Assembly (NCBI RefSeq): GCF_040958095.1 | Contig: NC_091227.1 | Span: 20,437,499-20,501,498, forward strand | Reading direction: 5' to 3' | DNA length: 64,000 bases | DNA from: Procambarus clarkii | Lineage: Eukaryota > Arthropoda > Malacostraca > Decapoda > Cambaridae | Shown: one piece after another, positions 3,077-63,265 of the stretch | Numbering within the stretch: the first letter of the stretch is position 1 | Layout: the number at the start of each line of letters is the position of its first letter | Program-made: the position numbers and the translations under genes | Notes under the pieces: model-generated | Seen by the model: the letters and a program-made list of their open reading frames with translations, nothing else | The model's database searches: none | What the model was told of the DNA's origin: nothing

Positions 3077-5145
3077 CTATGAAGACACAACGGAATTCTT
3101 CTGATACTTCGTGGCGGCTTCTTCCAGGGTGCGGTGGACGGCGTAGGAGCTCTCAGGGTAGGCAGGAGGAACGCCATAGGACCTGCAGGAGGGAGGTGTC
3201 CCAGAGGACTCCAGGTTAACGTGACTCACAAGGACTATACCACACGGACATTGTCAACATGGGAGGAACAGTTAATGTCAACATTGAGTAATAAATTTAC
3301 CTACAAGATAAGGAAGAAAGAGGAAGAGAGTGCGTAAGAGAAACACAAGTATTATAATTATAATACTATAAAGAAATAAAACAGTTAAATTGGAAATAAC
3401 ACTTTAGAAGGATGAGGTCAATACTAATTATACCAGTAGACTAATAGACACTTTAGAAGGATGAGGTCAATACTAATGATAACTGTAGACTGCTGAAACA
3501 CCTGAAGCACTTGCTAGGGTCATCACGTGTCCCAGCAACACACTCCTCTACCGTCTGGGACACGTAATTGAGACACTCCAAGGCACTCAGATACTCACGT
3601 GAAATCCGGATAGTCTTCAGGCTCTTTCTTGCCCCAGATGAAGGGGATGATGATGGCTACCACAGCCACCGAGATGCCCAGGATCATCAACCCGATGAAC
3701 CAGGCGCCGTCACTGCTGATGGTGACGGACTGGTTGTTATCAAGGGTGGCAAGGAGGAACTTGGCTTGTTCCACTATGTCCCCCTCCTTCTGCTGGAGTT
3801 CCCGGGCGTCTTCGGCCGCGTCTTCGGCCGCGGCTTCGGCCGCGTCTCCGACCGCCTCTTCGGCCGCGTCTCCGACCGCGTCATCGGCCGCTATCCACGC
3901 AGCTCCAACCACTACAGCGACCAGTATTCCTGTTAGATGAGATCCGTTGTTAAATTACGTAATTGTCATCAAATTATGCCAGTTACCCAAGCCCCAAGCA
4001 GGGAACCAACGGTGCCCAATCAGCCTATAAGGCTGCCCAGGTTTCGAACCTGGGTCCTCACGCGTGTGATGCGTATATGTTAACCTTCAGCACCTCCTGT
4101 TGATTACCATACTATAACTCATAGGCGTCAATCTGTCTACCGCTCATCTCTTCTTAATTCATGAATTGGCCATGAGTCAATTGGCCAGAATCTGTCACCC
4201 TCCCCGTGAGTCAATTGGCCAGAATCTGTCACCCTCCCCGTGAGTCAATTGTCCAGAATCTGTCACTCTGGCCATAAGTCAATTGGCCAGAATCTTTCGC
4301 CCTGGCCATAAGTCAATTGGCCAGAATCTGTCACCCTGCTCGTGAGTCAATTTCCCTGCTGAATTCCAGGAGAGTTGACAGCGTTCCGTCCTACGCCTGT
4401 CGACTACGTTGACAGAAATCGTTAATTGTCCAAGGCCATGAGTCACCAAGTATTTACGTAATCATTAACGAAACCTGTTCATCTTTCAACAATCATGGCA
4501 GCTTTGTTTACATTTATTGAACATTTTATAAGCTTCACATTTTGGTGCCTTCTATTGATAATTACTTAATAAACTTCACAACTTCACAACCCAGGGTTAT
4601 TATTGTTGTAAACTTCGGACCTATTAAACTCTTGAATAAATTAAAACAAAGCCGCCATTATTTAAGAAAGATGTACACCCGCTTACGGAACGTAAGTGGG
4701 CGAGTAAATTATTGATGAATCCTGGCTGTTGCCTACGAGGTCACACGACCCTCCCTTGAGTCATAAGACCTTCTACTGGAGGTGTGGAGCTGAGTATGGG
4801 TATACGCATACTCACTCCTATACGATACGGCCAAAAATTGCCGTACTAGAAAATGGAAATTCATTTCCCAACTGAAATAGACCCAAAACAGCAAGTTTTG
4901 GGCCCTCTGGTAGGTTAGGAGAGCAGCAAGTTCTCCTAAGGTTTCAAAGCGTGATGAAAACGTCAAAGTTTTAGTGTCCTGACCTACTCTCCTAACCTAC
5001 CAGAGGACCCAAAACAGAAAACGGGACAGTAGGTCACTTTCGCCAGCCGCTTCCATGTTCTAGTAGGATAATTTTTAGCCTTAACCCAACACAGCACCAA
5101 CTTGCGTACTCTGCACAGCTGCACCGCCTTACCCTTAAAGTTCAT
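3077..5145 (-). CDS. Gene A: small single-pass membrane protein with signal peptide, 149 aa, 3 coding exons
   Basis: I do not recognise the family. The model is join(5133-5145, 3599-3929, 3077-3182) on the minus strand, 450 nt. Exon 1 is only 13 nt (ATG AAC TTT AAG G, donor GTAAGG). Exon 2 follows an AACAG acceptor and ends at AC|GTGAGT. Exon 3 follows CTCCTGCAG and ends in TAG. Phases (1, then 2) match at both junctions. Joining exons 1 and 2 creates a clean signal peptide, MNFKGILVAVVVGAAWIA. Residues about 19-55 are an Ala/Asp/Glu-rich stretch built on a DAVGDAAEEA theme. Residues about 80-103 are one hydrophobic membrane span, followed by a GKKEPEDY stop-transfer segment. The tail contains Pro/Tyr motifs and SYAVHRTLEEAATKYQ. 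Third codon positions are GC-rich against AT-rich surroundings. The topology predicts a type I plasma-membrane or secretory-pathway protein; the function is unknown. Introns (1203 and 416 bp) hold repeats. Confidence 0.72.
3400..3478. repeat. Direct duplication, 49-bp step, in gene A intron 2
   Basis: ACTTTAGAAGGATGAGGTCA plus the following AATACTAAT occurs twice, 49 bp apart, with nearly identical sequence. It lies inside the 416-bp second intron of gene A. Confidence 0.85.
4031..4097 (-). other. tRNA-Val(CAC)-like sequence
   Basis: Minus strand has a perfect T-arm (CCAGG-TTCGAAA-CCTGG) and an anticodon arm ACGC-ATCACAC-GCGT whose loop would present CAC (valine). The acceptor stem pairs poorly (GGTGC against GCAGCC) and the D-arm is weak. 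I read it as a tRNA pseudogene or SINE head inside intron 1 of gene A, not a working gene. Confidence 0.5.
4171..4352. repeat. 34-bp minisatellite, 5-6 copies
   Basis: Copies of a 34-bp unit built on GAGTCAATTGGCCAGAATCT, with successive GAGTCAA starts at 4174, 4208 and 4242. Later copies vary (GGCCATAAG for CCCGTGAG). Located in intron 1 of gene A. Confidence 0.9.
4440..4720. mobile_element. Decayed copy of the foldback MITE
   Basis: Left part (TATTTACGTAATCATTAACG ... GGCAGCTTTGTTTACATTTATT) and right part (AAACAAAGCCGCCATT ... AAGATGTACACCCGCTTACG) are inverted relatives of each other and of the arms of the element at 683-930, with many substitutions. Confidence 0.55.
4896..5014. repeat. 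Foldback: 28-bp inverted repeat related to the satellite linker
   Basis: Left arm 4896-4923 and right arm 4987-5014 are inverted copies (27 of 28 match) containing CCTCTGGTAGGTTAGGAGAG, with a 63-bp spacer. The minus-strand sequence from about 5070 down to 4925 is homologous to the linker of the 1,224-bp satellite (shared TACTGTCCCGTTTTCTG, GGTAGGTTAGG, GAAACCTTAGGAG). It therefore marks a dispersed element that predates or fed the array. It lies in intron 1 of gene A. Confidence 0.75.
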
Positions 5146-19390: not shown

Positions 19391-19490
19391 CCAATGGGGT
19401 GAGGTTTTAGGGTGAATGTCAACCAATCAGCGGCCGGGTTTGGTTGGCTGCTGGGTATAAAAGGAAGGATGAGCCAAAATGCACTTCAGT
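19391..19490 (+). promoter_or_regulatory. Core promoter of gene B (two CCAAT boxes, TATA, initiator)
   Basis: CCAAT at 19391-19395 and 19423-19427, TATAAAA at 19456-19462, and a TCAGT initiator at 19486-19490 with A+1 at 19488. The spacing from TATA to A+1 is 32 bp, identical to gene A. A 50-nt leader then reaches a CTTGAAG|GTGAGC donor at 19537/19538, giving a non-coding first exon. The four elements in correct order and spacing make chance unlikely. Confidence 0.65.
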
Positions 19491-19556
19491 GTGTTTTACC
19501 TCACTTTTAGTATACAGTTCAGCTTCGTCTCTTGAAGGTGAGCTGTATGGTGAGGA

Positions 19557-19886
19557 TCCTCCCTCCCCCCGCCCCTTGCTGCGTCCCCCCCCCCCTCCCT
19601 CCCTCCCTCCGCCCCTTGCTGCGTCCCCCCTCCCTCCGCCCCTTGCTGCGTCCCCCCCTCCCTCCGCCCCTTGCTGCGTCCCCCCTCCCTCCGCCCCTTG
19701 CTGCGTCGCCGCCCCCTCCCTCCGCCCCTTGCTGCGTCGCCGCCCCCTCCCTCCCCCTCCCTCCCCCTCCGCCCCTTGCTGCGTCCCCCCTCCCTCGGCC
19801 CCTTGCTGCGTCCCCCCTCCCTCGGCCCCCTGCTGCGTCCCCCCTCCCTCCCCCTCCGCCCCTGCCCCTTGCTGCGTCGCCGCCCC
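19557..19886. repeat. C-rich minisatellite (CCTCCGCCCCTTGCTGCGTC), about 12-14 copies
   Basis: Units of about 23-30 bp combining runs of CCCTCC with CGCCCCTTGCTGCGTC. The minus strand has many closely spaced G-runs, so G-quadruplex or i-motif formation is plausible. It begins about 20 bp after the putative first donor of gene B and would lie in its first intron. Confidence 0.95.
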
Positions 19887-20419
19887 TCCTTATGGGGGGG
19901 AGAACTACGATTATTTAAGATTTGCCTTAACCTAACCTTCGAATCGTCAAGTGCACATAATGCTGTGTGTGGCACTATAGCAGAGGCAAACTGGCCTGTG
20001 ACGCTCCTCCACCTCACTCCTCTCATGCGAGAGGCTACCCCTTAACGTCTGGCCTTGGCCCTCAAATTCGGCTAGATACACTAACAATTTCTTAATGAAC
20101 AGTGGGGTTACTAGGTATTAAAACGTTGAAACCACATTCTTAACTATATTTAAAACATATTATTAAAACATGACTAAAATTCAGTAGGCGAAAGATGTAA
20201 TTCTTTCTAGTGAAATTTTTTAGAAAACTAGGTTTTGTTAATCTTTAGGCTGTCTATCCATAGTATTTGGTGTTTTGTACCATCAACGTTAACTATGAAA
20301 CTTTTTGTGTATTGTAAAATTGACGGCATTTCAGTAAATTGTATCGCTCATGATTTCGGCAAGTTATGTATATAATTCTAATAAGTTAACGGAATAATTC
20401 GTCCTGACCATCGCACAGG

Positions 20420-20600
20420 AACGATCATTATGAAACTACCGGTTCGTAGTAGTGTCTGTCAGCGGCCCCCCCCCTCACCGGGGATCTAGACAAGGCAGAC
20501 GCTTGACACAAGCGCCTTAAGCCTCGGGGTGCTAGTCTCCTGGACACTTCCCACAGTGCTATATAATCGTTAAGGCTTGGCGCTGTCTCCTGATGGTTTC
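20420..20600 (+). mobile_element. SINE copy
   Basis: The 3' part, AGTGCTATATAATCGTTAAG then GCTTGGCGCTGTCTCCTGAT, matches the 3' domain of the SINEs at 61262-61485 (minus) and 62785-62970 (plus). The head is more diverged. Lies in the putative first intron of gene B. Confidence 0.6.
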
Positions 20601-23500: not shown

Positions 23501-24000
23501 NNNNNNNNNNNNNNNNNNNNNNNNNNNNNNNNNNNNNNNNNNNNNNNNNNNNNNNNNNNNNNNNNNNNNNNNNNNNNNNNNNNNNNNNNNNNNNNNNNNN
23601 NNNNNNNNNNNNNNNNNNNNNNNNNNNNNNNNNNNNNNNNNNNNNNNNNNNNNNNNNNNNNNNNNNNNNNNNNNNNNNNNNNNNNNNNNNNNNNNNNNNN
23701 NNNNNNNNNNNNNNNNNNNNNNNNNNNNNNNNNNNNNNNNNNNNNNNNNNNNNNNNNNNNNNNNNNNNNNNNNNNNNNNNNNNNNNNNNNNNNNNNNNNN
23801 NNNNNNNNNNNNNNNNNNNNNNNNNNNNNNNNNNNNNNNNNNNNNNNNNNNNNNNNNNNNNNNNNNNNNNNNNNNNNNNNNNNNNNNNNNNNNNNNNNNN
23901 NNNNNNNNNNNNNNNNNNNNNNNNNNNNNNNNNNNNNNNNNNNNNNNNNNNNNNNNNNNNNNNNNNNNNNNNNNNNNNNNNNNNNNNNNNNNNNNNNNNN
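23501..24000. other. Assembly gap (500 N)
   Basis: Exactly 500 N. A round number suggests a scaffolding placeholder, so the true distance and the adjacency of the two flanking arrays are not established by sequence. Confidence 0.98.
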
Positions 24001-27000
24001 TATTATAAGTAGTACTTATGTTTTAAGTACCAACATATGACTTTATGTACCATATGCATTATAGGTACCATACATTTGCTATTATAAGTACCACACATAT
24101 GGCATTATAAGTACCATATATTTCCTATTATAAGTACCACACGTATACATAATAAGCACGATACATATATAAGTACCATACATATGCAGTTATAAGTACC
24201 ATACATATGCTGTTATAAGTACCATACATATGCTGTTGTAAGTACCATACATATGCCCATATAAGTACCATTCAAAATACTCTCTAAGTAAAGGAATATT
24301 ATAGAAATTACTTAATTTTCATTACCCATTTTTAATTCAGCTCTTTATTATTATTATTACATGTTTTTCAACAAATTTTTCTTAATAGTATGTTGAGAAA
24401 ACACGATGAAATTTTTGATATTTGAGACGGCCGTATCTCGGTAAATATGTGTGTAAAGGCCTTCATATTGAAAATTAGCAAAGAAAGCCTTTACAGAAAG
24501 AAATATAAATTGCTGTGGTAAACACAATGGTACCATTTTCAAAGCGATTCTATGGCTAGTTTTGATTTTGAGTTTTGAGAAAAATGACGATTTCGCCCGG
24601 GCTGCGATTCTTTCCTGGCAAAAGGCTGTGTGGCAGAAAATGTAAGCTGGTCGCTAAAGTGACGTACTGTCCCGTTTTCTGATTTGGGTCCTGTGGTAGG
24701 TTAGGCGATTACACCTTAAATTGACCTTTTCTTGACGTTAGGAACCTTAGGAGGACGGGCTGAGTTAAGTACTATACATATGACCATATAAGTACCATTC
24801 TCATGCCCATATAAGTACCATTCTCATGCCCATATAAGTACCATACACGTAACAATATATGTACCATACACATGACCATAAAATGGCCATATAAGTATTA
24901 TACATAGGCTCGTGTAAGTACCATTGATATGCCCATATAAGTATCATACATATGCCCTTCTAAGTACCATAGATATGTCGTTGTAAGTATCATATATGTG
25001 TCTTTGTAAATACCATACATATGCCTTTATAAGTACCATACATATGCCAATATAAGTATCATACATGTCTTTATAAGTTCAGTACTTTTCATGGCTTTAT
25101 GAGTACTATACATATGGCTTTATAAGGACCATCTTATGTCTTTATAAGTACCATATGATGTCATTATAAGTACCATACATATGCCATTATAAGGGCCATA
25201 CACATGCCATTACAAGTATCATACATGTCTTTATAAGAACCATACGTATGTCTTTACAAGTACCGTACTTATGACTTTATAAGTACCATACATATGCCAT
25301 TATAGGTACCATACATTTGCTATTATAAGTACCACACATATGGCATTATAAGTACCATATATTTCCTATTATAAGTACCACACCTATACCATAATAAGCA
25401 CGATACATATGCCATATAAGTACCATACATATGCAGTTATAAGTACCATACATATGCTGTTATAAGTACCATACGTATGCTATTGTAAGTACCATAGATA
25501 TGCCCATATAAGTACCATTCAAAATACTCTCTAAGTAAAGGAATAATTATAGAAATTACTTAATTTTCATTACCCACTTTTTATTTCAGCTCTTTATTAT
25601 TATTATTACATGTTTTTCAACAAATTTTTCTTAATAATATGTTGAGAAAACACGATGAAATTTTTGATATTTGAGATGGCCGTATCTCGGTAAATATGGA
25701 TGTAAAGGCCTTAATATTGAAAATTAGCAAAGAAAGCCTTTATAGAAAGAAATGTAAATTGCTGTGGTAAACACAATGGTACCATTTTCAAAGCGATTCT
25801 ATGGCTAGTTTTGATTTTGAGTTTTGAGAAAAATGACGATTTCGCCCGGGCTGCGATTCTTTCCTGGCAAAAGGCTGTGTGGCAGAAAATGTAAGCTGGT
25901 CGCTAGAGTGACGTACTGTCCCGTTTTCTGATTTGGGTCCTGTGGTAGGTTAGGCGATTACACCCTAAATTGACCTTTTCTTGACGTTAGGAACCTTAGG
26001 AGGACGGGCTGAGTTAAGTACTATACATATGACCATATAAGTACCATTCTCATGCCCATATAAGTACCATACACGTAACAATATATGTACCATACACATG
26101 ACCATAAAATGGCCAAATAAGTATTATACATAGGCTCGTGTAAGTACCATTGATATGCCCATATAAGTATCATACATATGCCCTTCTAAGTACCATAGAT
26201 ATGTCGTTGTAAGTATCATATATGTGTCTATGTAAATACCATACATATGCCTTTATAAGTACCATACATATGCCAATATAAGTATCATACATGTCTTTAT
26301 AAGTTCAGTACTTTTCATGGCTTTATGAGTACTATACATATGGCTTTATAAGGACCATCATATGTCTTTATAAGTACCATATGATGTCATTATAAGTACC
26401 ATACATATGCCATTATAAGGGCCATACACATGCCATTACAAGTATCATACATGTCTTTATAAGAACCATACGTATGTCTTTACAAGTACCGTACTTATGA
26501 CTTTATAAGTACCATACATATGCCATTATAGGTACCATACATTTGCTATTATAAGTACCACACATATGGCATTATAAGTACCATATATTTCCTATTATAA
26601 GTACCACACCTATACCATAATAAGCACGATACATATGCCATATAAGTACCATACATATGCAGTTATAAGTACCATACATATGCTGTTATAAGTACCATAC
26701 GTATGCTATTGTAAGTACCATAGATATGCCCATATAAGTACCATTCAAAATACTCTCTAAGTAAAGGAATATTATAGAAATTACTTAATTTTCATTACCC
26801 ACTTTTTATTCAGCTCTTTATTATTATTATTACATGTTTTTCAACAAATTTTTCTTAATAATATGTTGAGAAAACACGATGAAATTTTTGATATTTGAGA
26901 TGGCCGTATCTCGGTAAATATGGATGTAAAGGCCTTAATATTGAAAATTAGCAAAGAAAGCCTTTACAGAAAGAAATGTAAATTGCTGTGGTAAACACAA

Positions 27001-30000
27001 TGGTACCATTTTCAAAGCGATTCTATGGCTAGTTTTGATTTTGAGTTTTGAGAAAAATGACGATTTCGCCCGGGCTGCGATTCTTTCCTGGCAAAAGGCT
27101 GTGTGGCAGAAAATGTAAGCTGGTCGCTAGAGTGACGTACTGTCCCGTTTTCTGATTTGGGTCCTGTGGTAGGTTAGGCGATTACACCCTAAATTGACCT
27201 TTTCTTGACGTTAGGAACCTTAGGAGGACGGGCTGAGTTAAGTACTATACATATGACCATATAAGTACCATTCTCATGCCCATATAAGTACCATACACGT
27301 AACAATATATGTACCATACACATGACCATAAAATGGCCATATAAGTATTATACATAGGCTCGTGTAAGTACCATTGATATGCCCATATAAGTATCATACA
27401 TATGCCCTTCTAAGTACCATAGATATGTCGTTGTAAGTATCATATATGTGTCTATGTAAATACCATACATATGCCTTTATAAGTACCATACATATGCCAA
27501 TATAAGTATCATACATGTCTTTATAAGTTCAGTACTTTTCATGGCTTTATGAGTACTATACATATGGCTTTATAAGGACCATCATATGTCTTTATAAGTA
27601 CCATATGATGTCATTATAAGTACCATACATATGCCATTATAAGGGCCATACACATGCCATTACAAGTATCATACATGTCTTTATAAGAACCATACGTATG
27701 TCTTTACAAGTACCGTACTTATGACTTTATAAGTACCATACATATGCCATTATAGGTACCATACATTTGCTATTATAAGTACCACACATATGGCATTATA
27801 AGTACCATATATTTCCTATTATAAGTACCACACCTATACCATAATAAGCACGATACATATGCCATATAAGTACCATACATATGCAGTTATAAGTACCATA
27901 CATATGCTGTTATAAGTACCATACGTATGCTATTGTAAGTACCATAGATATGCCCATATAAGTACCATTCAAAATACTCTCTAAGTAAAGGAATATTATA
28001 GAAATTACTTAATTTTCATTACCCACTTTTTATTCAGCTCTTTATTATTATTATTACATGTTTTTCAACAAATTTTTCTTAATAATATGTTGAGAAAACA
28101 CGATGAAATTTTTGATATTTGAGATGGCCGTATCTCGGTAAATATGGATGTAAAGGCCTTAATATTGAAAATTAGCAAAGAAAGCCTTTACAGAAAGAAA
28201 TGTAAATTGCTGTGGTAAACACAATGGTACCATTTTCAAAGCGATTCTATGGCTAGTTTTGATTTTGAGTTTTGAGAAAAATGACGATTTCGCCCGGGCT
28301 GCGATTCTTTCCTGGCAAAAGGCTGTGTGGCAGAAAATGTAAGCTGGTCGCTAGAGTGACGTACTGTCCCGTTTTCTGATTTGGGTCCTGTGGTAGGTTA
28401 GGCGATTACACCTTAAATTGACCTTTTCTTGACGTTAGGAACCTTAGGAGGACGGGCTGAGTTAAGTACTATACATATGACCATATAAGTACCATTCTCA
28501 TGCCCATATAAGTACCATACACGTAACAATATATGTACCATACACATGACCATAAAATGGCCATATAAGTATTATACATAGGCTCGTGTAAGTACCATTG
28601 ATATGCCCATATAAGTATCATACATATGCCCTTCTAAGTACCATAGATATGTCGTTGTAAGTATCATATATGTGTCTATGTAAATACCATACATATGCCT
28701 TTATAAGTACCATACATATGCCAATATAAGTATCATACATGTCTTTATAAGTTCAGTACTTTTCATGGCTTTATGAGTACTATACATATGGCTTTATAAG
28801 GACCATCATATGTCTTTATAAGTACCATATGATGTCATTATAAGTACCATACATATGCCATTATAAGGGCCATACACATGCCATTACAAGTATCATACAT
28901 GTCTTTATAAGAACCATACGTATGTCTTTACAAGTACCGTACTTATGACTTTATAAGTACCATACATATGCCATTATAGGTACCATACATTTGCTATTAT
29001 AAGTACCACACATATGGCATTATAAGTACCATATATTTCCTATTATAAGTACCACACCTATACCATAATAAGCACGATACATATGCCATATAAGTACCAT
29101 ACATATGCAGTTATAAGTACCATACATATGCTGTTATAAGTACCATACGTATGCTATTGTAAGTACCATAGATATGCCCATATAAGTACCATTCAAAATA
29201 CTCTCTAAGTAAAGGAATATTATAGAAATTACTTAATTTTCATTACCCACTTTTTATTCAGCTCTTTATTATTATTATTACATGTTTTTCAACAAATTTT
29301 TCTTAATAATATGTTGAGAAAACACGATGAAATTTTTGATATTTGAGATGGCCGTATCTCGGTAAATATGGATGTAAAGGCCTTAATATTGAAAATTAGC
29401 AAAGAAAGCCTTTACAGAAAGAAATGTAAATTGCTGTGGTAAACACAATGGTACCATTTTCAAAGCGATTCTATGGCTAGTTTTGATTTTGAGTTTTGAG
29501 AAAAATGACGATTTCGCCCGGGCTGCGATTCTTTCCTGGCAAAAGGCTGTGTGGCAGAAAATGTAAGCTGGTCGCTAGAGTGACGTACTGTCCCGTTTTC
29601 TGATTTGGGTCCTGTGGTAGGTTAGGCGATTACACCCTAAATTGACCTTTTCTTGACGTTAGGAACCTTAGGAGGACGGGCTGAGTTAAGTACTATACAT
29701 ATGACCATATAAGTACCATTCTCATGCCCATATAAGTACCATACACGTAACAATATATGTACCATACACATGACCATAAAATGGCCAAATAAGTATTATA
29801 CATAGGCTCGTGTAAGTACCATTGATATGCCCATATAAGTATCATACATATGCCCTTCTAAGTACCATAGATATGTCGTTGTAAGTATCATATATGTGTC
29901 TATGTAAATACCATACATATGCCTTTATAAGTACCATACATATGCCAATATAAGTATCATACATGTCTTTATAAGTTCAGTACTTTTCATGGCTTTATGA

Positions 30001-33000
30001 GTACTATACATATGGCTTTATAAGGACCATCATATGTCTTTATAAGTACCATATGATGTCATTATAAGTACCATACATATGCCATTATAAGGGCCATACA
30101 CATGCCATTACAAGTATCATACATGTCTTTATAAGAACCATACGTATGTCTTTACAAGTACCGTACTTATGACTTTATAAGTACCATACATATGCCATTA
30201 TAGGTACCATACATTTGCTATTATAAGTACCACACATATGGCATTATAAGTACCATATATTTCCTATTATAAGTACCACACCTATACCATAATAAGCACG
30301 ATACATATGCCATATAAGTACCATACATATGCAGTTATAAGTACCATACATATGCTGTTATAAGTACCATACGTATGCTATTGTAAGTACCATAGATATG
30401 CCCATATAAGTACCATTCAAAATACTCTCTAAGTAAAGGAATATTATAGAAATTACTTAATTTTCATTACCCACTTTTTATTCAGCTCTTTATTATTATT
30501 ATTACATGTTTTTCAACAAATTTTTCTTAATAATATGTTGAGAAAACACGATGAAATTTTTGATATTTGAGATGGCCGTATCTCGGTAAATATGGATGTA
30601 AAGGCCTTAATATTGAAAATTAGCAAAGAAAGCCTTTACAGAAAGAAATGTAAATTGCTGTGGTAAACACAATGGTACCATTTTCAAAGCGATTCTATGG
30701 CTAGTTTTGATTTTGAGTTTTGAGAAAAATGACGATTTCGCCCGGGCTGCGATTCTTTCCTGGCAAAAGGCTGTGTGGCAGAAAATGTAAGCTGGTCGCT
30801 AGAGTGACGTACTGTCCCGTTTTCTGATTTGGGTCCTGTGGTAGGTTAGGCGATTACACCCTAAATTGACCTTTTCTTGACGTTAGGAACCTTAGGAGGA
30901 CGGGCTGAGTTAAGTACTATACATATGACCATATAAGTACCATTCTCATGCCCATATAAGTACCATACACGTAACAATATATGTACCATACACATGACCA
31001 TAAAATGGCCATATAAGTATTATACATAGGCTCGTGTAAGTACCATTGATATGCCCATATAAGTATCATACATATGCCCTTCTAAGTACCATAGATATGT
31101 CGTTGTAAGTATCATATATGTGTCTATGTAAATACCATACATATGCCTTTATAAGTACCATACATATGCCAATATAAGTATCATACATGTCTTTATAAGT
31201 TCAGTACTTTTCATGGCTTTATGAGTACTATACATATGGCTTTATAAGGACCATCATATGTCTTTATAAGTACCATATGATGTCATTATAAGTACCATAC
31301 ATATGCCATTATAAGGGCCATACACATGCCATTACAAGTATCATACATGTCTTTATAAGAACCATACGTATGTCTTTACAAGTACCGTACTTATGACTTT
31401 ATAAGTACCATACATATGCCATTATAGGTACCATACATTTGCTATTATAAGTACCACACATATGGCATTATAAGTACCATATATTTCCTATTATAAGTAC
31501 CACACCTATACCATAATAAGCACGATACATATGCCATATAAGTACCATACATATGCAGTTATAAGTACCATACATATGCTGTTATAAGTACCATACGTAT
31601 GCTATTGTAAGTACCATAGATATGCCCATATAAGTACCATTCAAAATACTCTCTAAGTAAAGGAATATTATAGAAATTACTTAATTTTCATTACCCACTT
31701 TTTATTCAGCTCTTTATTATTATTATTACATGTTTTTCAACAAATTTTTCTTAATAATATGTTGAGAAAACACGATGAAATTTTTGATATTTGAGATGGC
31801 CGTATCTCGGTAAATATGGATGTAAAGGCCTTAATATTGAAAATTAGCAAAGAAAGCCTTTACAGAAAGAAATGTAAATTGCTGTGGTAAACACAATGGT
31901 ACCATTTTCAAAGCGATTCTATGGCTAGTTTTGATTTTGAGTTTTGAGAAAAATGACGATTTCGCCCGGGCTGCGATTCTTTCCTGGCAAAAGGCTGTGT
32001 GGCAGAAAATGTAAGCTGGTCGCTAGAGTGACGTACTGTCCCGTTTTCTGATTTGGGTCCTGTGGTAGGTTAGGCGATTACACCTTAAATTGACCTTTTC
32101 TTGACGTTAGGAACCTTAGGAGGACGGGCTGAGTTAAGTACTATACATATGACCATATAAGTACCATTCTCATGCCCATATAAGTACCATACACGTAACA
32201 ATATATGTACCATACACATGACCATAAAATGGCCATATAAGTATTATACATAGGCTCGTGTAAGTACCATTGATATGCCCATATAAGTATCATACATATG
32301 CCCTTCTAAGTACCATAGATATGTCGTTGTAAGTATCATATATGTGTCTATGTAAATACCATACATATGCCTTTATAAGTACCATACATATGCCAATATA
32401 AGTATCATACATGTCTTTATAAGTTCAGTACTTTTCATGGCTTTATGAGTAATACATATGGCTTTATAAGGACCATCATATGTCTTTATAAGTACCATAT
32501 GATGTCATTATAAGTACCATACATATGCCATTATAAGGGCCATACACATGCCATTACAAGTATCATACATGTCTTTATAAGAACCATACGTATGTCTTTA
32601 CAAGTACCGTACTTATGACTTTATAAGTACCATACATATGCCATTATAGGTACCATACATTTGCTATTATAAGTACCACACATATGGCATTATAAGTACC
32701 ATATATTTCCTATTATAAGTACCACACCTATACCATAATAAGCACGATACATATGCCATATAAGTACCATACATATGCAGTTATAAGTACCATACATATG
32801 CTGTTATAAGTACCATACGTATGCTATTGTAAGTACCATAGATATGCCCATATAAGTACCATTCAAAATACTCTCTAAGTAAAGGAATATTATAGAAATT
32901 ACTTAATTTTCATTACCCACTTTTTATTCAGCTCTTTATTATTATTATTACATGTTTTTCAACAAATTTTTCTTAATAATATGTTGAGAAAACACGATGA

Positions 33001-36000
33001 AATTTTTGATATTTGAGATGGCCGTATCTCGGTAAATATGGATGTAAAGGCCTTAATATTGAAAATTAGCAAAGAAAGCCTTTACAGAAAGAAATGTAAA
33101 TTGCTGTGGTAAACACAATGGTACCATTTTCAAAGCGATTCTATGGCTAGTTTTGATTTTGAGTTTTGAGAAAAATGACGATTTCGCCCGGGCTGCGATT
33201 CTTTCCTGGCAAAAGGCTGTGTGGCAGAAAATGTAAGCTGGTCGCTAGAGTGACGTACTGTCCCGTTTTCTGATTTGGGTCCTGTGGTAGGTTAGGCGAT
33301 TACACCCTAAATTGACCTTTTCTTGACGTTAGGAACCTTAGGAGGACGGGCTGAGTTAAGTACTATACATATGACCATATAAGTACCATTCTCATGCCCA
33401 TATAAGTACCATACACGTAACAATATATGTACCATACACATGACCATAAAATGGCCAAATAAGTATTATACATAGGCTCGTGTAAGTACCATTGATATGC
33501 CCATATAAGTATCATACATATGCCCTTCTAAGTACCATAGATATGTCGTTGTAAGTATCATATATGTGTCTATGTAAATACCATACATATGCCTTTATAA
33601 GTACCATACATATGCCAATATAAGTATCATACATGTCTTTATAAGTTCAGTACTTTTCATGGCTTTATGAGTACTATACATATGGCTTTATAAGGACCAT
33701 CATATGTCTTTATAAGTACCATATGATGTCATTATAAGTACCATACATATGCCATTATAAGGGCCATACACATGCCATTACAAGTATCATACATGTCTTT
33801 ATAAGAACCATACGTATGTCTTTACAAGTACCGTACTTATGACTTTATAAGTACCATACATATGCCATTATAGGTACCATACATTTGCTATTATAAGTAC
33901 CACACATATGGCATTATAAGTACCATATATTTCCTATTATAAGTACCACACCTATACCATAATAAGCACGATACATATGCCATATAAGTACCATACATAT
34001 GCAGTTATAAGTACCATACATATGCTGTTATAAGTACCATACGTATGCTATTGTAAGTACCATAGATATGCCCATATAAGTACCATTCAAAATACTCTCT
34101 AAGTAAAGGAATATTATAGAAATTACTTAATTTTCATTACCCACTTTTTATTCAGCTCTTTATTATTATTATTACATGTTTTTCAACAAATTTTTCTTAA
34201 TAATATGTTGAGAAAACACGATGAAATTTTTGATATTTGAGATGGCCGTATCTCGGTAAATATGGATGTAAAGGCCTTAATATTGAAAATTAGCAAAGAA
34301 AGCCTTTACAGAAAGAAATGTAAATTGCTGTGGTAAACACAATGGTACCATTTTCAAAGCGATTCTATGGCTAGTTTTGATTTTGAGTTTTGAGAAAAAT
34401 GACGATTTCGCCCGGGCTGCGATTCTTTCCTGGCAAAAGGCTGTGTGGCAGAAAATGTAAGCTGGTCGCTAGAGTGACGTACTGTCCCGTTTTCTGATTT
34501 GGGTCCTGTGGTAGGTTAGGCGATTACACCCTAAATTGACCTTTTCTTGACGTTAGGAACCTTAGGAGGACGGGCTGAGTTAAGTACTATACATATGACC
34601 ATATAAGTACCATTCTCATGCCCATATAAGTACCATACACGTAACAATATATGTACCATACACATGACCATAAAATGGCCAAATAAGTATTATACATAGG
34701 CTCGTGTAAGTACCATTGATATGCCCATATAAGTATCATACATATGCCCTTCTAAGTACCATAGATATGTCGTTGTAAGTATCATATATGTGTCTATGTA
34801 AATACCATACATATGCCTTTATAAGTACCATACATATGCCAATATAAGTATCATACATGTCTTTATAAGTTCAGTACTTTTCATGGCTTTATGAGTACTA
34901 TACATATGGCTTTATAAGGACCATCATATGTCTTTATAAGTACCATATGATGTCATTATAAGTACCATACATATGCCATTATAAGGGCCATACACATGCC
35001 ATTACAAGTATCATACATGTCTTTATAAGAACCATACGTATGTCTTTACAAGTACCGTACTTATGACTTTATAAGTACCATACATATGCCATTATAGGTA
35101 CCATACATTTGCTATTATAAGTACCACACATATGGCATTATAAGTACCATATATTTCCTATTATAAGTACCACACCTATACCATAATAAGCACGATACAT
35201 ATGCCATATAAGTACCATACATATGCAGTTATAAGTACCATACATATGCTGTTATAAGTACCATACGTATGCTATTGTAAGTACCATAGATATGCCCATA
35301 TAAGTACCATTCAAAATACTCTCTAAGTAAAGGAATATTATAGAAATTACTTAATTTTCATTACCCACTTTTTATTCAGCTCTTTATTATTATTATTACA
35401 TGTTTTTCAACAAATTTTTCTTAATAATATGTTGAGAAAACACGATGAAATTTTTGATATTTGAGATGGCCGTATCTCGGTAAATATGGATGTAAAGGCC
35501 TTAATATTGAAAATTAGCAAAGAAAGCCTTTACAGAAAGAAATGTAAATTGCTGTGGTAAACACAATGGTACCATTTTCAAAGCGATTCTATGGCTAGTT
35601 TTGATTTTGAGTTTTGAGAAAAATGACGATTTCGCCCGGGCTGCGATTCTTTCCTGGCAAAAGGCTGTGTGGCAGAAAATGTAAGCTGGTCGCTAGAGTG
35701 ACGTACTGTCCCGTTTTCTGATTTGGGTCCTGTGGTAGGTTAGGCGATTACACCCTAAATTGACCTTTTCTTGACGTTAGGAACCTTAGGAGGACGGGCT
35801 GAGTTAAGTACTATACATATGACCATATAAGTACCATTCTCATGCCCATATAAGTACCATACACGTAACAATATATGTACCATACACATGACCATAAAAT
35901 GGCCATATAAGTATTATACATAGGCTCGTGTAAGTACCATTGATATGCCCATATAAGTATCATACATATGCCCTTCTAAGTACCATAGATATGTCGTTGT

Positions 36001-39000
36001 AAGTATCATATATGTGTCTATGTAAATACCATACATATGCCTTTATAAGTACCATACATATGCCAATATAAGTATCATACATGTCTTTATAAGTTCAGTA
36101 CTTTTCATGGCTTTATGAGTACTATACATATGGCTTTATAAGGACCATCATATGTCTTTATAAGTACCATATGATGTCATTATAAGTACCATACATATGC
36201 CATTATAAGGGCCATACACATGCCATTACAAGTATCATACATGTCTTTATAAGAACCATACGTATGTCTTTACAAGTACCGTACTTATGACTTTATAAGT
36301 ACCATACATATGCCATTATAGGTACCATACATTTGCTATTATAAGTACCACACATATGGCATTATAAGTACCATATATTTCCTATTATAAGTACCACACC
36401 TATACCATAATAAGCACGATACATATGCCATATAAGTACCATACATATGCAGTTATAAGTACCATACATATGCTGTTATAAGTACCATACGTATGCTATT
36501 GTAAGTACCATAGATATGCCCATATAAGTACCATTCAAAATACTCTCTAAGTAAAGGAATATTATAGAAATTACTTAATTTTCATTACCCACTTTTTATT
36601 CAGCTCTTTATTATTATTATTACATGTTTTTCAACAAATTTTTCTTAATAATATGTTGAGAAAACACGATGAAATTTTTGATATTTGAGATGGCCGTATC
36701 TCGGTAAATATGGATGTAAAGGCCTTAATATTGAAAATTAGCAAAGAAAGCCTTTACAGAAAGAAATGTAAATTGCTGTGGTAAACACAATGGTACCATT
36801 TTCAAAGCGATTCTATGGCTAGTTTTGATTTTGAGTTTTGAGAAAAATGACGATTTCGCCCGGGCTGCGATTCTTTCCTGGCAAAAGGCTGTGTGGCAGA
36901 AAATGTAAGCTGGTCGCTAGAGTGACGTACTGTCCCGTTTTCTGATTTGGGTCCTGTGGTAGGTTAGGCGATTACACCCTAAATTGACCTTTTCTTGACG
37001 TTAGGAACCTTAGGAGGACGGGCTGAGTTAAGTACTATACATATGACCATATAAGTACCATTCTCATGCCCATATAAGTACCATACACGTAACAATATAT
37101 GTACCATACACATGACCATAAAATGGCCATATAAGTATTATACATAGGCTCGTGTAAGTACCATTGATATGCCCATATAAGTATCATACATATGCCCTTC
37201 TAAGTACCATAGATATGTCGTTGTAAGTATCATATATGTGTCTATGTAAATACCATACATATGCCTTTATAAGTACCATACATATGCCAATATAAGTATC
37301 ATACATGTCTTTATAAGTTCAGTACTTTTCATGGCTTTATGAGTACTATACATATGGCTTTATAAGGACCATCATATGTCTTTATAAGTACCATATGATG
37401 TCATTATAAGTACCATACATATGCCATTATAAGGGCCATACACATGCCATTACAAGTATCATACATGTCTTTATAAGAACCATACGTATGTCTTTACAAG
37501 TACCGTACTTATGACTTTATAAGTACCATACATATGCCATTATAGGTACCATACATTTGCTATTATAAGTACCACACATATGGCATTATAAGTACCATAT
37601 ATTTCCTATTATAAGTACCACACCTATACCATAATAAGCACGATACATATGCCATATAAGTACCATACATATGCAGTTATAAGTACCATACATATGCTGT
37701 TATAAGTACCATACGTATGCTATTGTAAGTACCATAGATATGCCCATATAAGTACCATTCAAAATACTCTCTAAGTAAAGGAATATTATAGAAATTACTT
37801 AATTTTCATTACCCACTTTTTATTCAGCTCTTTATTATTATTATTACATGTTTTTCAACAAATTTTTCTTAATAATATGTTGAGAAAACACGATGAAATT
37901 TTTGATATTTGAGATGGCCGTATCTCGGTAAATATGGATGTAAAGGCCTTAATATTGAAAATTAGCAAAGAAAGCCTTTACAGAAAGAAATGTAAATTGC
38001 TGTGGTAAACACAATGGTACCATTTTCAAAGCGATTCTATGGCTAGTTTTGATTTTGAGTTTTGAGAAAAATGACGATTTCGCCCGGGCTGCGATTCTTT
38101 CCTGGCAAAAGGCTGTGTGGCAGAAAATGTAAGCTGGTCGCTAGAGTGACGTACTGTCCCGTTTTCTGATTTGGGTCCTGTGGTAGGTTAGGCGATTACA
38201 CCCTAAATTGACCTTTTCTTGACGTTAGGAACCTTAGGAGGACGGGCTGAGTTAAGTACTATACATATGACCATATAAGTACCATTCTCATGCCCATATA
38301 AGTACCATACACGTAACAATATATGTACCATACACATGACCATAAAATGGCCATATAAGTATTATACATAGGCTCGTGTAAGTACCATTGATATGCCCAT
38401 ATAAGTATCATACATATGCCCTTCTAAGTACCATAGATATGTCGTTGTAAGTATCATATATGTGTCTATGTAAATACCATACATATGCCTTTATAAGTAC
38501 CATACATATGCCAATATAAGTATCATACATGTCTTTATAAGTTCAGTACTTTTCATGGCTTTATGAGTACTATACATATGGCTTTATAAGGACCATCATA
38601 TGTCTTTATAAGTACCATATGATGTCATTATAAGTACCATACATATGCCATTATAAGGGCCATACACATGCCATTACAAGTATCATACATGTCTTTATAA
38701 GAACCATACGTATGTCTTTACAAGTACCGTACTTATGACTTTATAAGTACCATACATATGCCATTATAGGTACCATACATTTGCTATTATAAGTACCACA
38801 CATATGGCATTATAAGTACCATATATTTCCTATTATAAGTACCACACCTATACCATAATAAGCACGATACATATGCCATATAAGTACCATACATATGCAG
38901 TTATAAGTACCATACATATGCTGTTATAAGTACCATACGTATGCTATTGTAAGTACCATAGATATGCCCATATAAGTACCATTCAAAATACTCTCTAAGT

Positions 39001-42000
39001 AAAGGAATATTATAGAAATTACTTAATTTTCATTACCCACTTTTTATTCAGCTCTTTATTATTATTATTACATGTTTTTCAACAAATTTTTCTTAATAAT
39101 ATGTTGAGAAAACACGATGAAATTTTTGATATTTGAGATGGCCGTATCTCGGTAAATATGGATGTAAAGGCCTTAATATTGAAAATTAGCAAAGAAAGCC
39201 TTTACAGAAAGAAATGTAAATTGCTGTGGTAAACACAATGGTACCATTTTCAAAGCGATTCTATGGCTAGTTTTGATTTTGAGTTTTGAGAAAAATGACG
39301 ATTTCGCCCGGGCTGCGATTCTTTCCTGGCAAAAGGCTGTGTGGCAGAAAATGTAAGCTGGTCGCTAGAGTGACGTACTGTCCCGTTTTCTGATTTGGGT
39401 CCTGTGGTAGGTTAGGCGATTACACCCTAAATTGACCTTTTCTTGACGTTAGGAACCTTAGGAGGACGGGCTGAGTTAAGTACTATACATATGACCATAT
39501 AAGTACCATTCTCATGCCCATATAAGTACCATACACGTAACAATATATGTACCATACACATGACCATAAAATGGCCATATAAGTATTATACATAGGCTCG
39601 TGTAAGTACCATTGATATGCCCATATAAGTATCATACATATGCCCTTCTAAGTACCATAGATATGTCGTTGTAAGTATCATATATGTGTCTATGTAAATA
39701 CCATACATATGCCTTTATAAGTACCATACATATGCCAATATAAGTATCATACATGTCTTTATAAGTTCAGTACTTTTCATGGCTTTATGAGTACTATACA
39801 TATGGCTTTATAAGGACCATCATATGTCTTTATAAGTACCATATGATGTCATTATAAGTACCATACATATGCCATTATAAGGGCCATACACATGCCATTA
39901 CAAGTATCATACATGTCTTTATAAGAACCATACGTATGTCTTTACAAGTACCGTACTTATGACTTTATAAGTACCATACATATGCCATTATAGGTACCAT
40001 ACATTTGCTATTATAAGTACCACACATATGGCATTATAAGTACCATATATTTCCTATTATAAGTACCACACCTATACCATAATAAGCACGATACATATGC
40101 CATATAAGTACCATACATATGCAGTTATAAGTACCATACATATGCTGTTATAAGTACCATACGTATGCTATTGTAAGTACCATAGATATGCCCATATAAG
40201 TACCATTCAAAATACTCTCTAAGTAAAGGAATATTATAGAAATTACTTAATTTTCATTACCCACTTTTTATTCAGCTCTTTATTATTATTATTACATGTT
40301 TTTCAACAAATTTTTCTTAATAATATGTTGAGAAAACACGATGAAATTTTTGATATTTGAGATGGCCGTATCTCGGTAAATATGGATGTAAAGGCCTTAA
40401 TATTGAAAATTAGCAAAGAAAGCCTTTACAGAAAGAAATGTAAATTGCTGTGGTAAACACAATGGTACCATTTTCAAAGCGATTCTATGGCTAGTTTTGA
40501 TTTTGAGTTTTGAGAAAAATGACGATTTCGCCCGGGCTGCGATTCTTTCCTGGCAAAAGGCTGTGTGGCAGAAAATGTAAGCTGGTCGCTAGAGTGACGT
40601 ACTGTCCCGTTTTCTGATTTGGGTCCTGTGGTAGGTTAGGCGATTACACCCTAAATTGACCTTTTCTTGACGTTAGGAACCTTAGGAGGACGGGCTGAGT
40701 TAAGTACTATACATATGACCATATAAGTACCATTCTCATGCCCATATAAGTACCATACACGTAACAATATATGTACCATACACATGACCATAAAATGGCC
40801 ATATAAGTATTATACATAGGCTCGTGTAAGTACCATTGATATGCCCATATAAGTATCATACATATGCCCTTCTAAGTACCATAGATATGTCGTTGTAAGT
40901 ATCATATATGTGTCTATGTAAATACCATACATATGCCTTTATAAGTACCATACATATGCCAATATAAGTATCATACATGTCTTTATAAGTTCAGTACTTT
41001 TCATGGCTTTATGAGTACTATACATATGGCTTTATAAGGACCATCATATGTCTTTATAAGTACCATATGATGTCATTATAAGTACCATACATATGCCATT
41101 ATAAGGGCCATACACATGCCATTACAAGTATCATACATGTCTTTATAAGAACCATACGTATGTCTTTACAAGTACCGTACTTATGACTTTATAAGTACCA
41201 TACATATGCCATTATAGGTACCATACATTTGCTATTATAAGTACCACACATATGGCATTATAAGTACCATATATTTCCTATTATAAGTACCACACCTATA
41301 CCATAATAAGCACGATACATATGCCATATAAGTACCATACATATGCAGTTATAAGTACCATACATATGCTGTTATAAGTACCATACGTATGCTATTGTAA
41401 GTACCATAGATATGCCCATATAAGTACCATTCAAAATACTCTCTAAGTAAAGGAATATTATAGAAATTACTTAATTTTCATTACCCACTTTTTATTCAGC
41501 TCTTTATTATTATTATTACATGTTTTTCAACAAATTTTTCTTAATAATATGTTGAGAAAACACGATGAAATTTTTGATATTTGAGATGGCCGTATCTCGG
41601 TAAATATGGATGTAAAGGCCTTAATATTGAAAATTAGCAAAGAAAGCCTTTACAGAAAGAAATGTAAATTGCTGTGGTAAACACAATGGTACCATTTTCA
41701 AAGCGATTCTATGGCTAGTTTTGATTTTGAGTTTTGAGAAAAATGACGATTTCGCCCGGGCTGCGATTCTTTCCTGGCAAAAGGCTGTGTGGCAGAAAAT
41801 GTAAGCTGGTCGCTAGAGTGACGTACTGTCCCGTTTTCTGATTTGGGTCCTGTGGTAGGTTAGGCGATTACACCCTAAATTGACCTTTTCTTGACGTTAG
41901 GAACCTTAGGAGGACGGGCTGAGTTAAGTACTATACATATGACCATATAAGTACCATTCTCATGCCCATATAAGTACCATACACGTAACAATATATGTAC

Positions 42001-45000
42001 CATACACATGACCATAAAATGGCCATATAAGTATTATACATAGGCTCGTGTAAGTACCATTGATATGCCCATATAAGTATCATACATATGCCCTTCTAAG
42101 TACCATAGATATGTCGTTGTAAGTATCATATATGTGTCTATGTAAATACCATACATATGCCTTTATAAGTACCATACATATGCCAATATAAGTATCATAC
42201 ATGTCTTTATAAGTTCAGTACTTTTCATGGCTTTATGAGTACTATACATATGGCTTTATAAGGACCATCATATGTCTTTATAAGTACCATATGATGTCAT
42301 TATAAGTACCATACATATGCCATTATAAGGGCCATACACATGCCATTACAAGTATCATACATGTCTTTATAAGAACCATACGTATGTCTTTACAAGTACC
42401 GTACTTATGACTTTATAAGTACCATACATATGCCATTATAGGTACCATACATTTGCTATTATAAGTACCACACATATGGCATTATAAGTACCATATATTT
42501 CCTATTATAAGTACCACACCTATACCATAATAAGCACGATACATATGCCATATAAGTACCATACATATGCAGTTATAAGTACCATACATATGCTGTTATA
42601 AGTACCATACGTATGCTATTGTAAGTACCATAGATATGCCCATATAAGTACCATTCAAAATACTCTCTAAGTAAAGGAATATTATAGAAATTACTTAATT
42701 TTCATTACCCACTTTTTATTCAGCTCTTTATTATTATTATTACATGTTTTTCAACAAATTTTTCTTAATAATATGTTGAGAAAACACGATGAAATTTTTG
42801 ATATTTGAGATGGCCGTATCTCGGTAAATATGGATGTAAAGGCCTTAATATTGAAAATTAGCAAAGAAAGCCTTTACAGAAAGAAATGTAAATTGCTGTG
42901 GTAAACACAATGGTACCATTTTCAAAGCGATTCTATGGCTAGTTTTGATTTTGAGTTTTGAGAAAAATGACGATTTCGCCTGGGCTGCGATTCTTTCCTG
43001 GCAAAAGGCTGTGTGGCAGAAAATGTAAGCTGGTCGCTAGAGTGACGTACTGTCCCGTTTTCTGATTTGGGTCCTGTGGTAGGTTAGGCGATTACACCCT
43101 AAATTGACCTTTTCTTGACGTTAGGAACCTTAGGAGGACGGGCTGAGTTAAGTACTATACATATGACCATATAAGTACCATTCTCATGCCCATATAAGTA
43201 CCATACACGTAACAATATATGTACCATACACATGACCATAAAATGGCCATATAAGTATTATACATAGGCTCGTGTAAGTACCATTGATATGCCCATATAA
43301 GTATCATACATATGCCCTTCTAAGTACCATAGATATGTCGTTGTAAGTATCATATATGTGTCTATGTAAATACCATACATATGCCTTTATAAGTACCATA
43401 CATATGCCAATATAAGTATCATACATGTCTTTATAAGTTCAGTACTTTTCATGGCTTTATGAGTACTATACATATGGCTTTATAAGGACCATCATATGTC
43501 TTTATAAGTACCATATGATGTCATTATAAGTACCATACATATGCCATTATAAGGGCCATACACATGCCATTACAAGTATCATACATGTCTTTATAAGAAC
43601 CATACGTATGTCTTTACAAGTACCGTACTTATGACTTTATAAGTACCATACATATGCCATTATAGGTACCATACATTTGCTATTATAAGTACCACACATA
43701 TGGCATTATAAGTACCATATATTTCCTATTATAAGTACCACACCTATACCATAATAAGCACGATACATATGCCATATAAGTACCATACATATGCAGTTAT
43801 AAGTACCATACATATGCTGTTATAAGTACCATACGTATGCTATTGTAAGTACCATAGATATGCCCATATAAGTACCATTCAAAATACTCTCTAAGTAAAG
43901 GAATATTATAGAAATTACTTAATTTTCATTACCCACTTTTTATTCAGCTCTTTATTATTATTATTACATGTTTTTCAACAAATTTTTCTTAATAATATGT
44001 TGAGAAAACACGATGAAATTTTTTATATTTGAGATGGCCGTATCTCGGTAAATATGGATGTAAAGGCCTTAATATTGAAAATTAGCAAAGAAAGCCTTTA
44101 CAGAAAGAAATGTAAATTGCTGTGGTAAACACAATGGTACCATTTTCAAAGCGATTCTATGGCTAGTTTTGATTTTGAGTTTTGAGAAAAATGACGATTT
44201 CGCCCGGGCTGCGATTCTTTCCTGGCAAAAGGCTGTGTGGCAGAAAATGTAAGCTGGTCGCTAGAGTGACGTACTGTCCCGTTTTCTGATTTGGGTCCTG
44301 TGGTAGGTTAGGCGATTACACCCTAAATTGACCTTTTCTTGACGTTAGGAACCTTAGGAGGACGGGCTGAGTTAAGTACTATACATATGACCATATAAGT
44401 ACCATTCTCATGCCCATATAAGTACCATACACGTAACAATATATGTACCATACACATGACCATAAAATGGCCATATAAGTATTATACATAGGCTCGTGTA
44501 AGTACCATTGATATGCCCATATAAGTATCATACATATGCCCTTCTAAGTACCATAGATATGTCGTTGTAAGTATCATATATGTGTCTATGTAAATACCAT
44601 ACATATGCCTTTATAAGTACCATACATATGCCAATATAAGTATCATACATGTCTTTATAAGTTCAGTACTTTTCATGGCTTTATGAGTACTATACATATG
44701 GCTTTATAAGGACCATCATATGTCTTTATAAGTACCATATGATGTCATTATAAGTACCATACATATGCCATTATAAGGGCCATACACATGCCATTACAAG
44801 TATCATACATGTCTTTATAAGAACCATACGTATGTCTTTACAAGTACCGTACTTATGACTTTATAAGTACCATACATATGCCATTATAGGTACCATACAT
44901 TTGCTATTATAAGTACCACACATATGGCATTATAAGTACCATATATTTCCTATTATAAGTACCACACCTATACCATAATAAGCACGATACATATGCCATA

Positions 45001-45704
45001 TAAGTACCATACATATGCAGTTATAAGTACCATACATATGCTGTTATAAGTACCATACGTATGCTATTGTAAGTACCATAGATATGCCCATATAAGTACC
45101 ATTCAAAATACTCTCTAAGTAAAGGAATATTATAGAAATTACTTAATTTTCATTACCCACTTTTTATTCAGCTCTTTATTATTATTATTACATGTTTTTC
45201 AACAAATTTTTCTTAATAATATGTTGAGAAAACACGATGAAATTTTTGATATTTGAGATGGCCGTATCTCGGTAAATATGGATGTAAAGGCCTTAATATT
45301 GAAAATTAGCAAAGAAAGCCTTTACAGAAAGAAATGTAAATTGCTGTGGTAAACACAATGGTACCATTTTCAAAGCGATTCTATGGCTAGTTTTGATTTT
45401 GAGTTTTGAGAAAAATGACGATTTCGCCCGGGCTGCGATTCTTTCCTGGCAAAAGGCTGTGTGGCAGAAAATGTAAGCTGGTCGCCAAAATGACGTACTG
45501 TCCCGTTTTCTGATTTGGGTCCTCTGGTAGGTTAGGAGAGGACACCTTAAATTGACCTTTTCTTGACGTTGGGAACCTTAGGAAGACGAGCCGAGTTAAT
45601 TACTATACATATGACCATATAAGTACCATTCTCATGCCCATATAAGTACCATTCTCATGCCCATATAAGTACCATACACGTAACAATATATGTACCATAC
45701 TGAA
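24001..45704. repeat. Satellite array, 1,224-bp unit, about 17.7 copies
   Basis: The marker GAGTTAAGTACTATACATAT occurs at 24762, 26011, 27235, 28459, 29683, 30907, 32131, 33353, 34577, 35801, 37025, 38249, 39473, 40697, 41921, 43145 and 44369, with a variant at 45593. The spacing is 1,224 bp except 1,249 (first; a 25-bp extra piece) and 1,222 (a 2-bp deletion near 32,450). Each unit has about 32 degenerate 23-bp monomers built on ATAAGTACCATACATATG (about 730 bp). The other part is a non-repetitive linker of about 490 bp, from TCAAAATACTCTCTAAGTAA to GGACGGGCTGAGTT. Inner units differ by only a few substitutions. No open frame of 60 codons exists anywhere in the array. The left end is cut by the N gap; the right end falls at about 45704. 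Confidence 0.98.

Positions 45705-63223: not shown

Positions 63224-63226
<3 letters not shown>

Positions 63227-63265
<39 letters not shown>

What the first reader, a model, noticed from the sequence alone, without database searches (positions are those of the whole stretch)
24001..45704. Nested satellite: 23-bp monomers inside a 1,224-bp unit, about 17.7 copies
The unit is bipartite. About 730 bp is an internal tandem of roughly 32 diverged 23-bp monomers; about 490 bp is single-copy linker. Monomers within a unit differ strongly, yet units match each other almost exactly. The 23-bp expansion is therefore old and the 1,224-bp amplification recent. It fills at least a third of the window and has no coding capacity. 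A centromeric, heterochromatic or locus-specific role is possible, but nothing in the sequence decides it.
Basis: seen in the sequence. Interest (0 to 1): 0.75.

Follow-up and report, generated by a model that had tools for sequence, protein, structure and literature searches.

The report
Transposon-derived composite satellite DNA array
A 21.7-kb block of near-identical 1,224-bp repeats is one site of a composite satellite family found on several chromosomes of a large animal genome (probably a crayfish), each unit joining a 23-bp minisatellite to a recurring repeat module and a piece of a dispersed element; it illustrates how mobile-element debris can become satellite DNA, with no sign of a gene or a proven function.

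Summary
Window 24001-45700 carries 17.7 units of 1,224 bp: about 33 diverged 23-bp monomers plus a 491-bp linker. Monomers differ by 24%, core units by 0.08%. The copy number is a floor: the left end abuts a 500-N gap, and the last ~1.5 units there are a type also found in other arrays.

The linker occurs once per unit but not once per genome. Its last ~130 bp matches a dispersed foldback, MITE-like element (40 scored places on 28 contigs; one copy in this window). Its first ~345 bp is a core with hundreds of copies: with 23-bp monomers on several contigs (units 1,036-1,876 bp), with an unrelated 40-bp minisatellite at two C14 sites, near a 30-bp one on C22, and as inverted pairs on C61. I infer that a transposon-derived core was combined with different minisatellites and amplified in tandem. 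Unit length changes by whole monomers; array edges differ from the interior.

No coding capacity, Rfam family, conserved fold or CENP-B box was found. Several sites per chromosome argue against a centromere without excluding one. Closest known kind: transposon-related composite satellites (Tetris, oyster HINE).

The parts
23501..24000 (.). run of 500 N (assembly gap) that abuts the left end of the array
   Evidence: sequence
24001..45700 (+). composite satellite array, 17.7 units
24001..25520 (+). left edge: partial unit and u1 monomer block nearer to the type of C70/C1894/C2026 than to the window's own units; 9 small indels against those arrays in the outermost part
26002..44359 (+). homogenised interior, units u2-u16 (1,224 bp; u7 1,222 bp)
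44360..45700 (+). right edge: u17 (9 differences near its 3' end) and a 117-bp partial unit with the extra monomer
28463..29195 (+). 23-bp monomer block of unit u4 (33 stretches), consensus TATAAGTACCATACATATGCCAT
29196..29542 (+). ~345-bp linker core of unit u4, shared with loci that carry other minisatellites
29556..29686 (+). linker tail of unit u4, homologous to one arm of a dispersed MITE-like element; its end lies next to the first monomer
4924..5083 (-). separate copy of the same MITE-like foldback element in the left flank

Best explanation
The block is one array of a multi-locus composite satellite family assembled from mobile-element debris. SHOWN: the unit is (a) a 23-bp minisatellite, (b) a ~345-bp core, (c) ~130 bp homologous to one arm of a dispersed, foldback, MITE-like element, ending next to the first monomer. 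Part (c) also lies alone on many contigs; part (b) occurs in many arrays, also with unrelated minisatellites, and as inverted pairs on C61. Sampled units differ in length by whole 23-bp monomers; units inside the window array are near-identical while its edges differ. INFERRED: the core comes from a transposon with long inverted repeats beside which minisatellites arose or were captured; a composite that had gained the MITE-like end was amplified in tandem; unequal exchange and gene conversion homogenise arrays; multimers seeded new sites through DNA repair or circular intermediates (array 2 on C78 is 14 units plus ~30 bp, set in a ~305-bp duplication of its target). No host function is needed; it most likely persists as selfish or neutral satellite DNA.
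For: Family, not locus: 851 matches to a linker 31-mer (<=3 mismatches; control 0; 100 listed), 829 to a core 21-mer (<=1; control 0; 100 listed), 622 exact for its C-to-T form (control 0; 100 listed). Composite read in sequence on C78 (two arrays), C70 (two), C71, C38, C31, C56, C64, C1894, C2026. Tail: of 11 places noted as solitary, 6 were fetched; 5 (C5, C10, C20, C51, C59) share only the last ~125 bp of the linker, C20 interrupted by an insertion, while C64 is a 1.74-unit composite piece. 40 of 3,631 candidates for the MITE-like element were scored, on 28 contigs, most with a matching inverted arm ~70 bp away. Core with other partners: the C78a core is 74-83% identical to the C14 and C22 cores, whose 40- and 30-bp monomers match the 23-mer no better than shuffles (268 and 63 of 300 reach the score). 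Inverted core pairs 90 bp apart, about every 2,039 bp, on C61. Lengths 1,201/1,224/1,247/1,270 by whole monomers in 9 sampled units. Edges. Array 2 junctions.
Against: No element with both ends, no transposase and no target-site duplication of transposon type was found for the core, so its transposon nature is inferred from dispersal and inverted pairing. The near-integer unit number of array 2 would arise by chance in about 5% of random excisions (my estimate, 60 of 1,247 positions), and other array ends lie elsewhere in the unit (C70: 866, and ~508 or 143; window right end ~117). The two copies of the target duplication are 98.0% identical, not 100%. Concerted evolution is not visible for every array: C70, C1894 and C2026 differ as little between as within.
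Confidence: 0.7

Rival explanations
1. Centromeric or pericentromeric satellite with a structural role.
For: AT-rich (about 33% G+C), long homogeneous tandem arrays; a pericentromeric satellite is reported in crayfish (PlSAT3-411; abstract and parts of the results and discussion of PMC13130569 read).
Against: Several separate sites per chromosome-size contig at different positions: C56 at 15.2, 22.4 and 26.3 of 35.5 Mb; C70 at 25.3 and 26.1 of 31.6; C78 at 17.3 and 20.5 of 26.7; C38 at 12.6, 14.1 and 15.0 of 43.6 (the C38 sites at 14.1 and 15.0 Mb and the C56 sites at 22.4 and 26.3 Mb are known by spacing only). No CENP-B box in the window (0 matches; but only 0.13 expected by chance, so a weak test, and crustaceans need not use it).
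Confidence: 0.1
2. A non-autonomous Helentron/Helitron-type element (HINE) whose central tandem repeats expanded, as in oysters.
For: A conserved flank with different central repeats is the design reported for Cg_HINE (abstract of PMC7492417 read).
Against: Units form long head-to-tail arrays; inverted pairing of the core on C61 and the foldback tail element point to inverted-repeat elements. Helitron or Helentron ends were not searched for.
Confidence: 0.12
3. Assembly artefact: copy number, or the array itself, created by mis-assembly.
For: The array ends at a 500-N gap; 9 small indels near that contig end; unplaced contigs made up of the satellite as far as read or listed (C1894, C2026, C2089); the C70 array also holds a 500-N gap.
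Against: The right boundary runs into unrelated sequence; variant units recur (positions 138 and 1213); array 2 with its flanks is free of N over 50 kb; many separate arrays.
Confidence: 0.08

Closest known systems
Tetris / TIR-220 satellite of Drosophila virilis (PMC4079207; abstract and outline read)
   Same: foldback-type non-autonomous element supplying repeats that grew into kilobase satellite-like arrays
   Different: those arrays are built from ~220-bp repeats inside the inverted repeats; here a 23-bp minisatellite, a core and a MITE-like arm are amplified together as one unit
Cg_HINE Helentron elements of Crassostrea gigas (PMC7492417; abstract and outline read)
   Same: flanking modules combined with different central tandem repeats
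   Different: those are dispersed elements with short arrays; here the whole composite forms arrays of roughly 9 to 57 kb, and Helentron ends were not looked for
PlSAT75-664 of the crayfish Pontastacus leptodactylus (PMC7859515; sections 19 and 25 read)
   Same: crayfish satellite whose unit holds internal direct sub-repeats
   Different: four ~70-bp sub-repeats similar to PlSAT3-411; no transposon part reported in the sections read
MITEs with internal tandem repeats turning into satellites (models in the review PMC12628747; passages read)
   Same: MITE parts joined to expandable tandem repeats
   Different: only one arm of the MITE-like element was found in the unit here, at the 3' side of the linker

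Membership tests
Satellite DNA (composite, higher-order) | non-coding units in long head-to-tail arrays | tested here: met
Satellite DNA (composite, higher-order) | units more alike within than between arrays (concerted evolution) | tested here: inconclusive
   linker differences: met for C78a (0.59% within, edge units included; 1.8-2.2% to others) and C78b (0.13% within; 1.1-1.8% to others); not met for C70 (0.25% within; 0.22-0.25% to C2026 and C1894), C1894 and C2026 (0.05% and 0.00% within, 0.04% between)
MITE-derived satellite | part of the unit homologous to a dispersed inverted-repeat element | tested here: met
MITE-derived satellite | both termini of the element present in the unit | tested here: not met
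   no second terminus found in the unit (best inverted alignment is weak)
MITE-derived satellite | target-site duplications show that the dispersed element transposed | not tested
   no TSD analysis of the solitary copies was made
Foldback (Tetris-like) element | long inverted repeats flanking a centre | tested here: inconclusive
   inverted core pairs on C61 known by coordinates only; sequence not obtained
Helentron/HINE | Helentron terminal structures and characteristic insertion sites | not tested
   no end or empty-site analysis was made
Centromeric satellite | binds centromeric histone, as a rule one main site per chromosome | not testable with these tools
   several sites per chromosome-size contig seen; no ChIP or centromere map

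The most novel reading that the evidence does not exclude
The ~345-bp core is a satellite-seeding module: the long inverted repeat of a foldback-like transposon beside which unrelated minisatellites (23, 40 and 30 bp) have repeatedly arisen or been captured, and which then turned into macrosatellites at several loci, some by insertion of ready-made multimers.
Probability: 0.35. Interest if true: 0.6.

Novelty: new member of a known kind. Interest (0 to 1): 0.42.

Why it matters
It shows in one genome what look like several stages of satellite birth: a dispersed MITE-like element, a core module with different minisatellite partners, diverged and fresh tandem arrays, and an array set in a duplicated target. 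If the core really seeds satellites repeatedly, the origin of new satellites becomes testable by comparing related species at these loci.

Tried and rejected
Rfam on the whole window: 0 families at gathering score. Coding: no frame longer than shuffles give. Conserved RNA fold of the core: RNAalifold covariation term +0.83 on 10 rows, no support, although 6 of 62 predicted pairs have a two-sided change. Single-strand folding of one linker: z -0.84. CENP-B box in the window: 0, with 0.13 expected. A linker 31-mer in IMG/VR: 0. Three flanking ORFs: no Pfam match at E<=1. Organism: COX1 copies found, but PDB hits did not identify the animal. Procambarus clarkii rests on a published 4.03-Gb size (passage in PMC12842422; the assembly paper it cites was not held) against 4.027 Gb here, and on my recall of decapod repeats; it is not proved. 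First 360 bp of the linker and the 23-mer against ~120 kb of non-array DNA held: best E 0.12, no 23-mer within 5 mismatches.

What the counts do not cover: pattern searches list only 100 places, so most of the 851, 829 and 622 matches have no place in my account; DNA searches scored only 40 of 3,138, 40 of 3,631 and 40 of 1,536 candidates. Of 11 places noted as solitary, 5 were not fetched. In one search, linkers matched over fewer than 486 query bases were dropped (71 kept), and of C70 only 26138000-26157999 was used. In one search, monomers with indels were left out. Arrays at C56:22.4 and 26.3 Mb, C14:5.47 Mb, C38:14.1 and 15.0 Mb, C110, C1992, C2089, C2230 and C61 are known by positions and spacing only, not read; for those on C14, C38 (14.1, 15.0) and C61 the minisatellite is therefore unknown.

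Full report
OBSERVATION. The array is real. Seventeen anchors at 24753-44360 give 16 spacings, 14 of them 1,224 bp, the others 1,249 and 1,222. Unit u4 holds 33 monomer stretches of the 23-bp consensus TATAAGTACCATACATATGCCAT (28463-29195) and a 491-bp linker (29196-29686). The 23-bp period is far beyond chance (65.9% lag identity against 28.6%, sd 1.6, in 500 shuffles). Monomers differ by 24%, interior units by 0.081%. So the 23-bp expansion is older than the present homogeneity of the units; strictly, the low divergence dates the last homogenisation, not the first amplification.

EDGES. The left end meets 500 N at 23501-24000. The first linker (24275-24765) shows the consensus state at all 44 variable columns of a 71-linker alignment, the state of most C1894, C2026 and C70 linkers, while the window's own linkers lie about 2% away. 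The monomer block of u1 has 4 mismatches in 755 to C70 or C1894, and 7 in 732 to the window interior. Nine small gaps in the outermost ~750 bp may reflect lower sequence quality at a contig end. u1 and the right-hand partial unit share an extra monomer that u2-u17 lack; u17 has the GGAGAGGACACC variant listed also on C56, C64, C71, C110 and C1992. This is the usual picture of an array homogenised inside and different at its edges. Variants at positions 138 (u2, u5, u8, u9) and 1213 (u3, u6, u17) hint at duplication of a three-unit block; this is weak.

GENOME-WIDE. The window lies at C78:20437499-20501498 of a 4.027-Gb, 2,308-contig assembly. The 40 scored of 3,138 linker candidates lie in this array, a second array on C78 (minus strand, unit 1,247), C70, C1894 and C2026 (structure). 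A 31-mer has 851 matches at <=3 mismatches (control 0), a core 21-mer 829 at <=1 (control 0), and its C-to-T form 622 exact (control 0; these should be part of the 829). Spacing differs by locus: 1,224; 1,247; 1,236/1,476; 1,739/1,762; 1,876; 1,031/1,055; ~1,036; ~1,350; 1,040-1,095; 1,808/2,169 (minisatellite not read for the last three). The 1,876-bp unit on C71 contains a full and a truncated linker. In 9 sampled units, lengths 1,201, 1,224, 1,247 and 1,270 differ by whole monomers, mostly copies of the one next to the linker end.

WHAT THE LINKER IS. Of 11 places noted as solitary, six were fetched. C64 proved to be a 1.74-unit composite piece. The other five (C5, C10, C20, C51, C59) share only the linker's last ~125 bp. 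They belong to a dispersed element with inverted arms; a copy lies in this window at 4924-5083, in a stretch that folds strongly (z -4.5). Its 40 scored places, the query included, lie on 28 contigs at 80-100% identity. The linker's end AGGAGGACGGGCTG lies near the shared end of these copies; the exact terminus is not fixed, as the copies diverge after about GGACGG. The remaining ~345 bp, the core, gave no significant hit in ~120 kb of other DNA held but occurs with 23-bp monomers and a diverged tail on C38 and C31 (core 93%, tail 82-85%); with a 40-bp minisatellite and another tail at two C14 sites; near a 33.6-copy 30-bp minisatellite on C22; and as a fragment with a few 23-bp monomers at C38:9.03 Mb. 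The three minisatellites are not detectably related. On C61 the core lies in inverted pairs 90 bp apart, about every 2,039 bp over ~47 kb with some places missing from the scored list, and in further pairs at 15.4, 18.8 and 20.0 Mb. I could not read C61.

HOW IT MAY SPREAD. Array 2 on C78 lies inside a copy of a dispersed element whose uninterrupted relative is at window 18901-20448. About 305 bp of that element are repeated on both sides (98.0% alike), with ~47 bp of filler on one side; the array starts and ends at unit positions 1029 and 1000, so it holds 14 units plus ~30 bp. Insertion of a multimer, perhaps circular, at a staggered break fits, but this is one case with a ~5% chance coincidence, and the ends of the C70 array and of the window array do not show it. 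The C64 piece and one end at C56:15.19 Mb share the same satellite/flank junction; the C64 piece lies between ~790-bp inverted arms, one of which is also beside the C56 junction, so some copies seem to have moved with their surroundings.

FUNCTION. I found no sign of one: no frame, no Rfam family, no supported fold, no CENP-B box. Several sites per chromosome-size contig argue against a centromere. I treat it as selfish or neutral satellite DNA.

LITERATURE. Transposon-derived satellites with internal repeats are known: Tetris (abstract and outline), oyster HINE (abstract and outline), models in review PMC12628747 (passages); a crayfish satellite with sub-repeats is PlSAT75-664 (sections 19 and 25 of PMC7859515). 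In the listings of my searches and the parts of PMC13130569 and PMC10454600 (passages) that I saw there was no description of this family, but crayfish satellite lists sit in supplements that I could not open, so it may already be catalogued.

Noticed in passing
window 18901-20448; C78:17273009-17273973, 17281486-17282866, 17300407-17300812: a dispersed element (called E here) with a GC-rich minisatellite; array 2 of C78 lies inside one copy
   Followed up: partly
window 62468-63227; L046; L045: a repeat that on C64 and C56 borders inverted arms next to satellite pieces
   Followed up: partly
window 1-23500: dense minisatellites and G+C 0.42-0.52 up to 22000, against 0.34-0.42 right of the array; the two sides are separated by the 500-N gap, so their join presumably rests on scaffolding
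   Followed up: no
G000 C47:468639, C78:26596341, C68:23139520, C2308:34: COX1 matches over the whole profile with TGA inside, on chromosome-size contigs as well as on the last-numbered one: mitochondrial inserts or the organelle contig
   Followed up: no
G000 C61:12130317-12177787: core sequence as inverted pairs, 90 bp apart, about every 2,039 bp
   Followed up: partly
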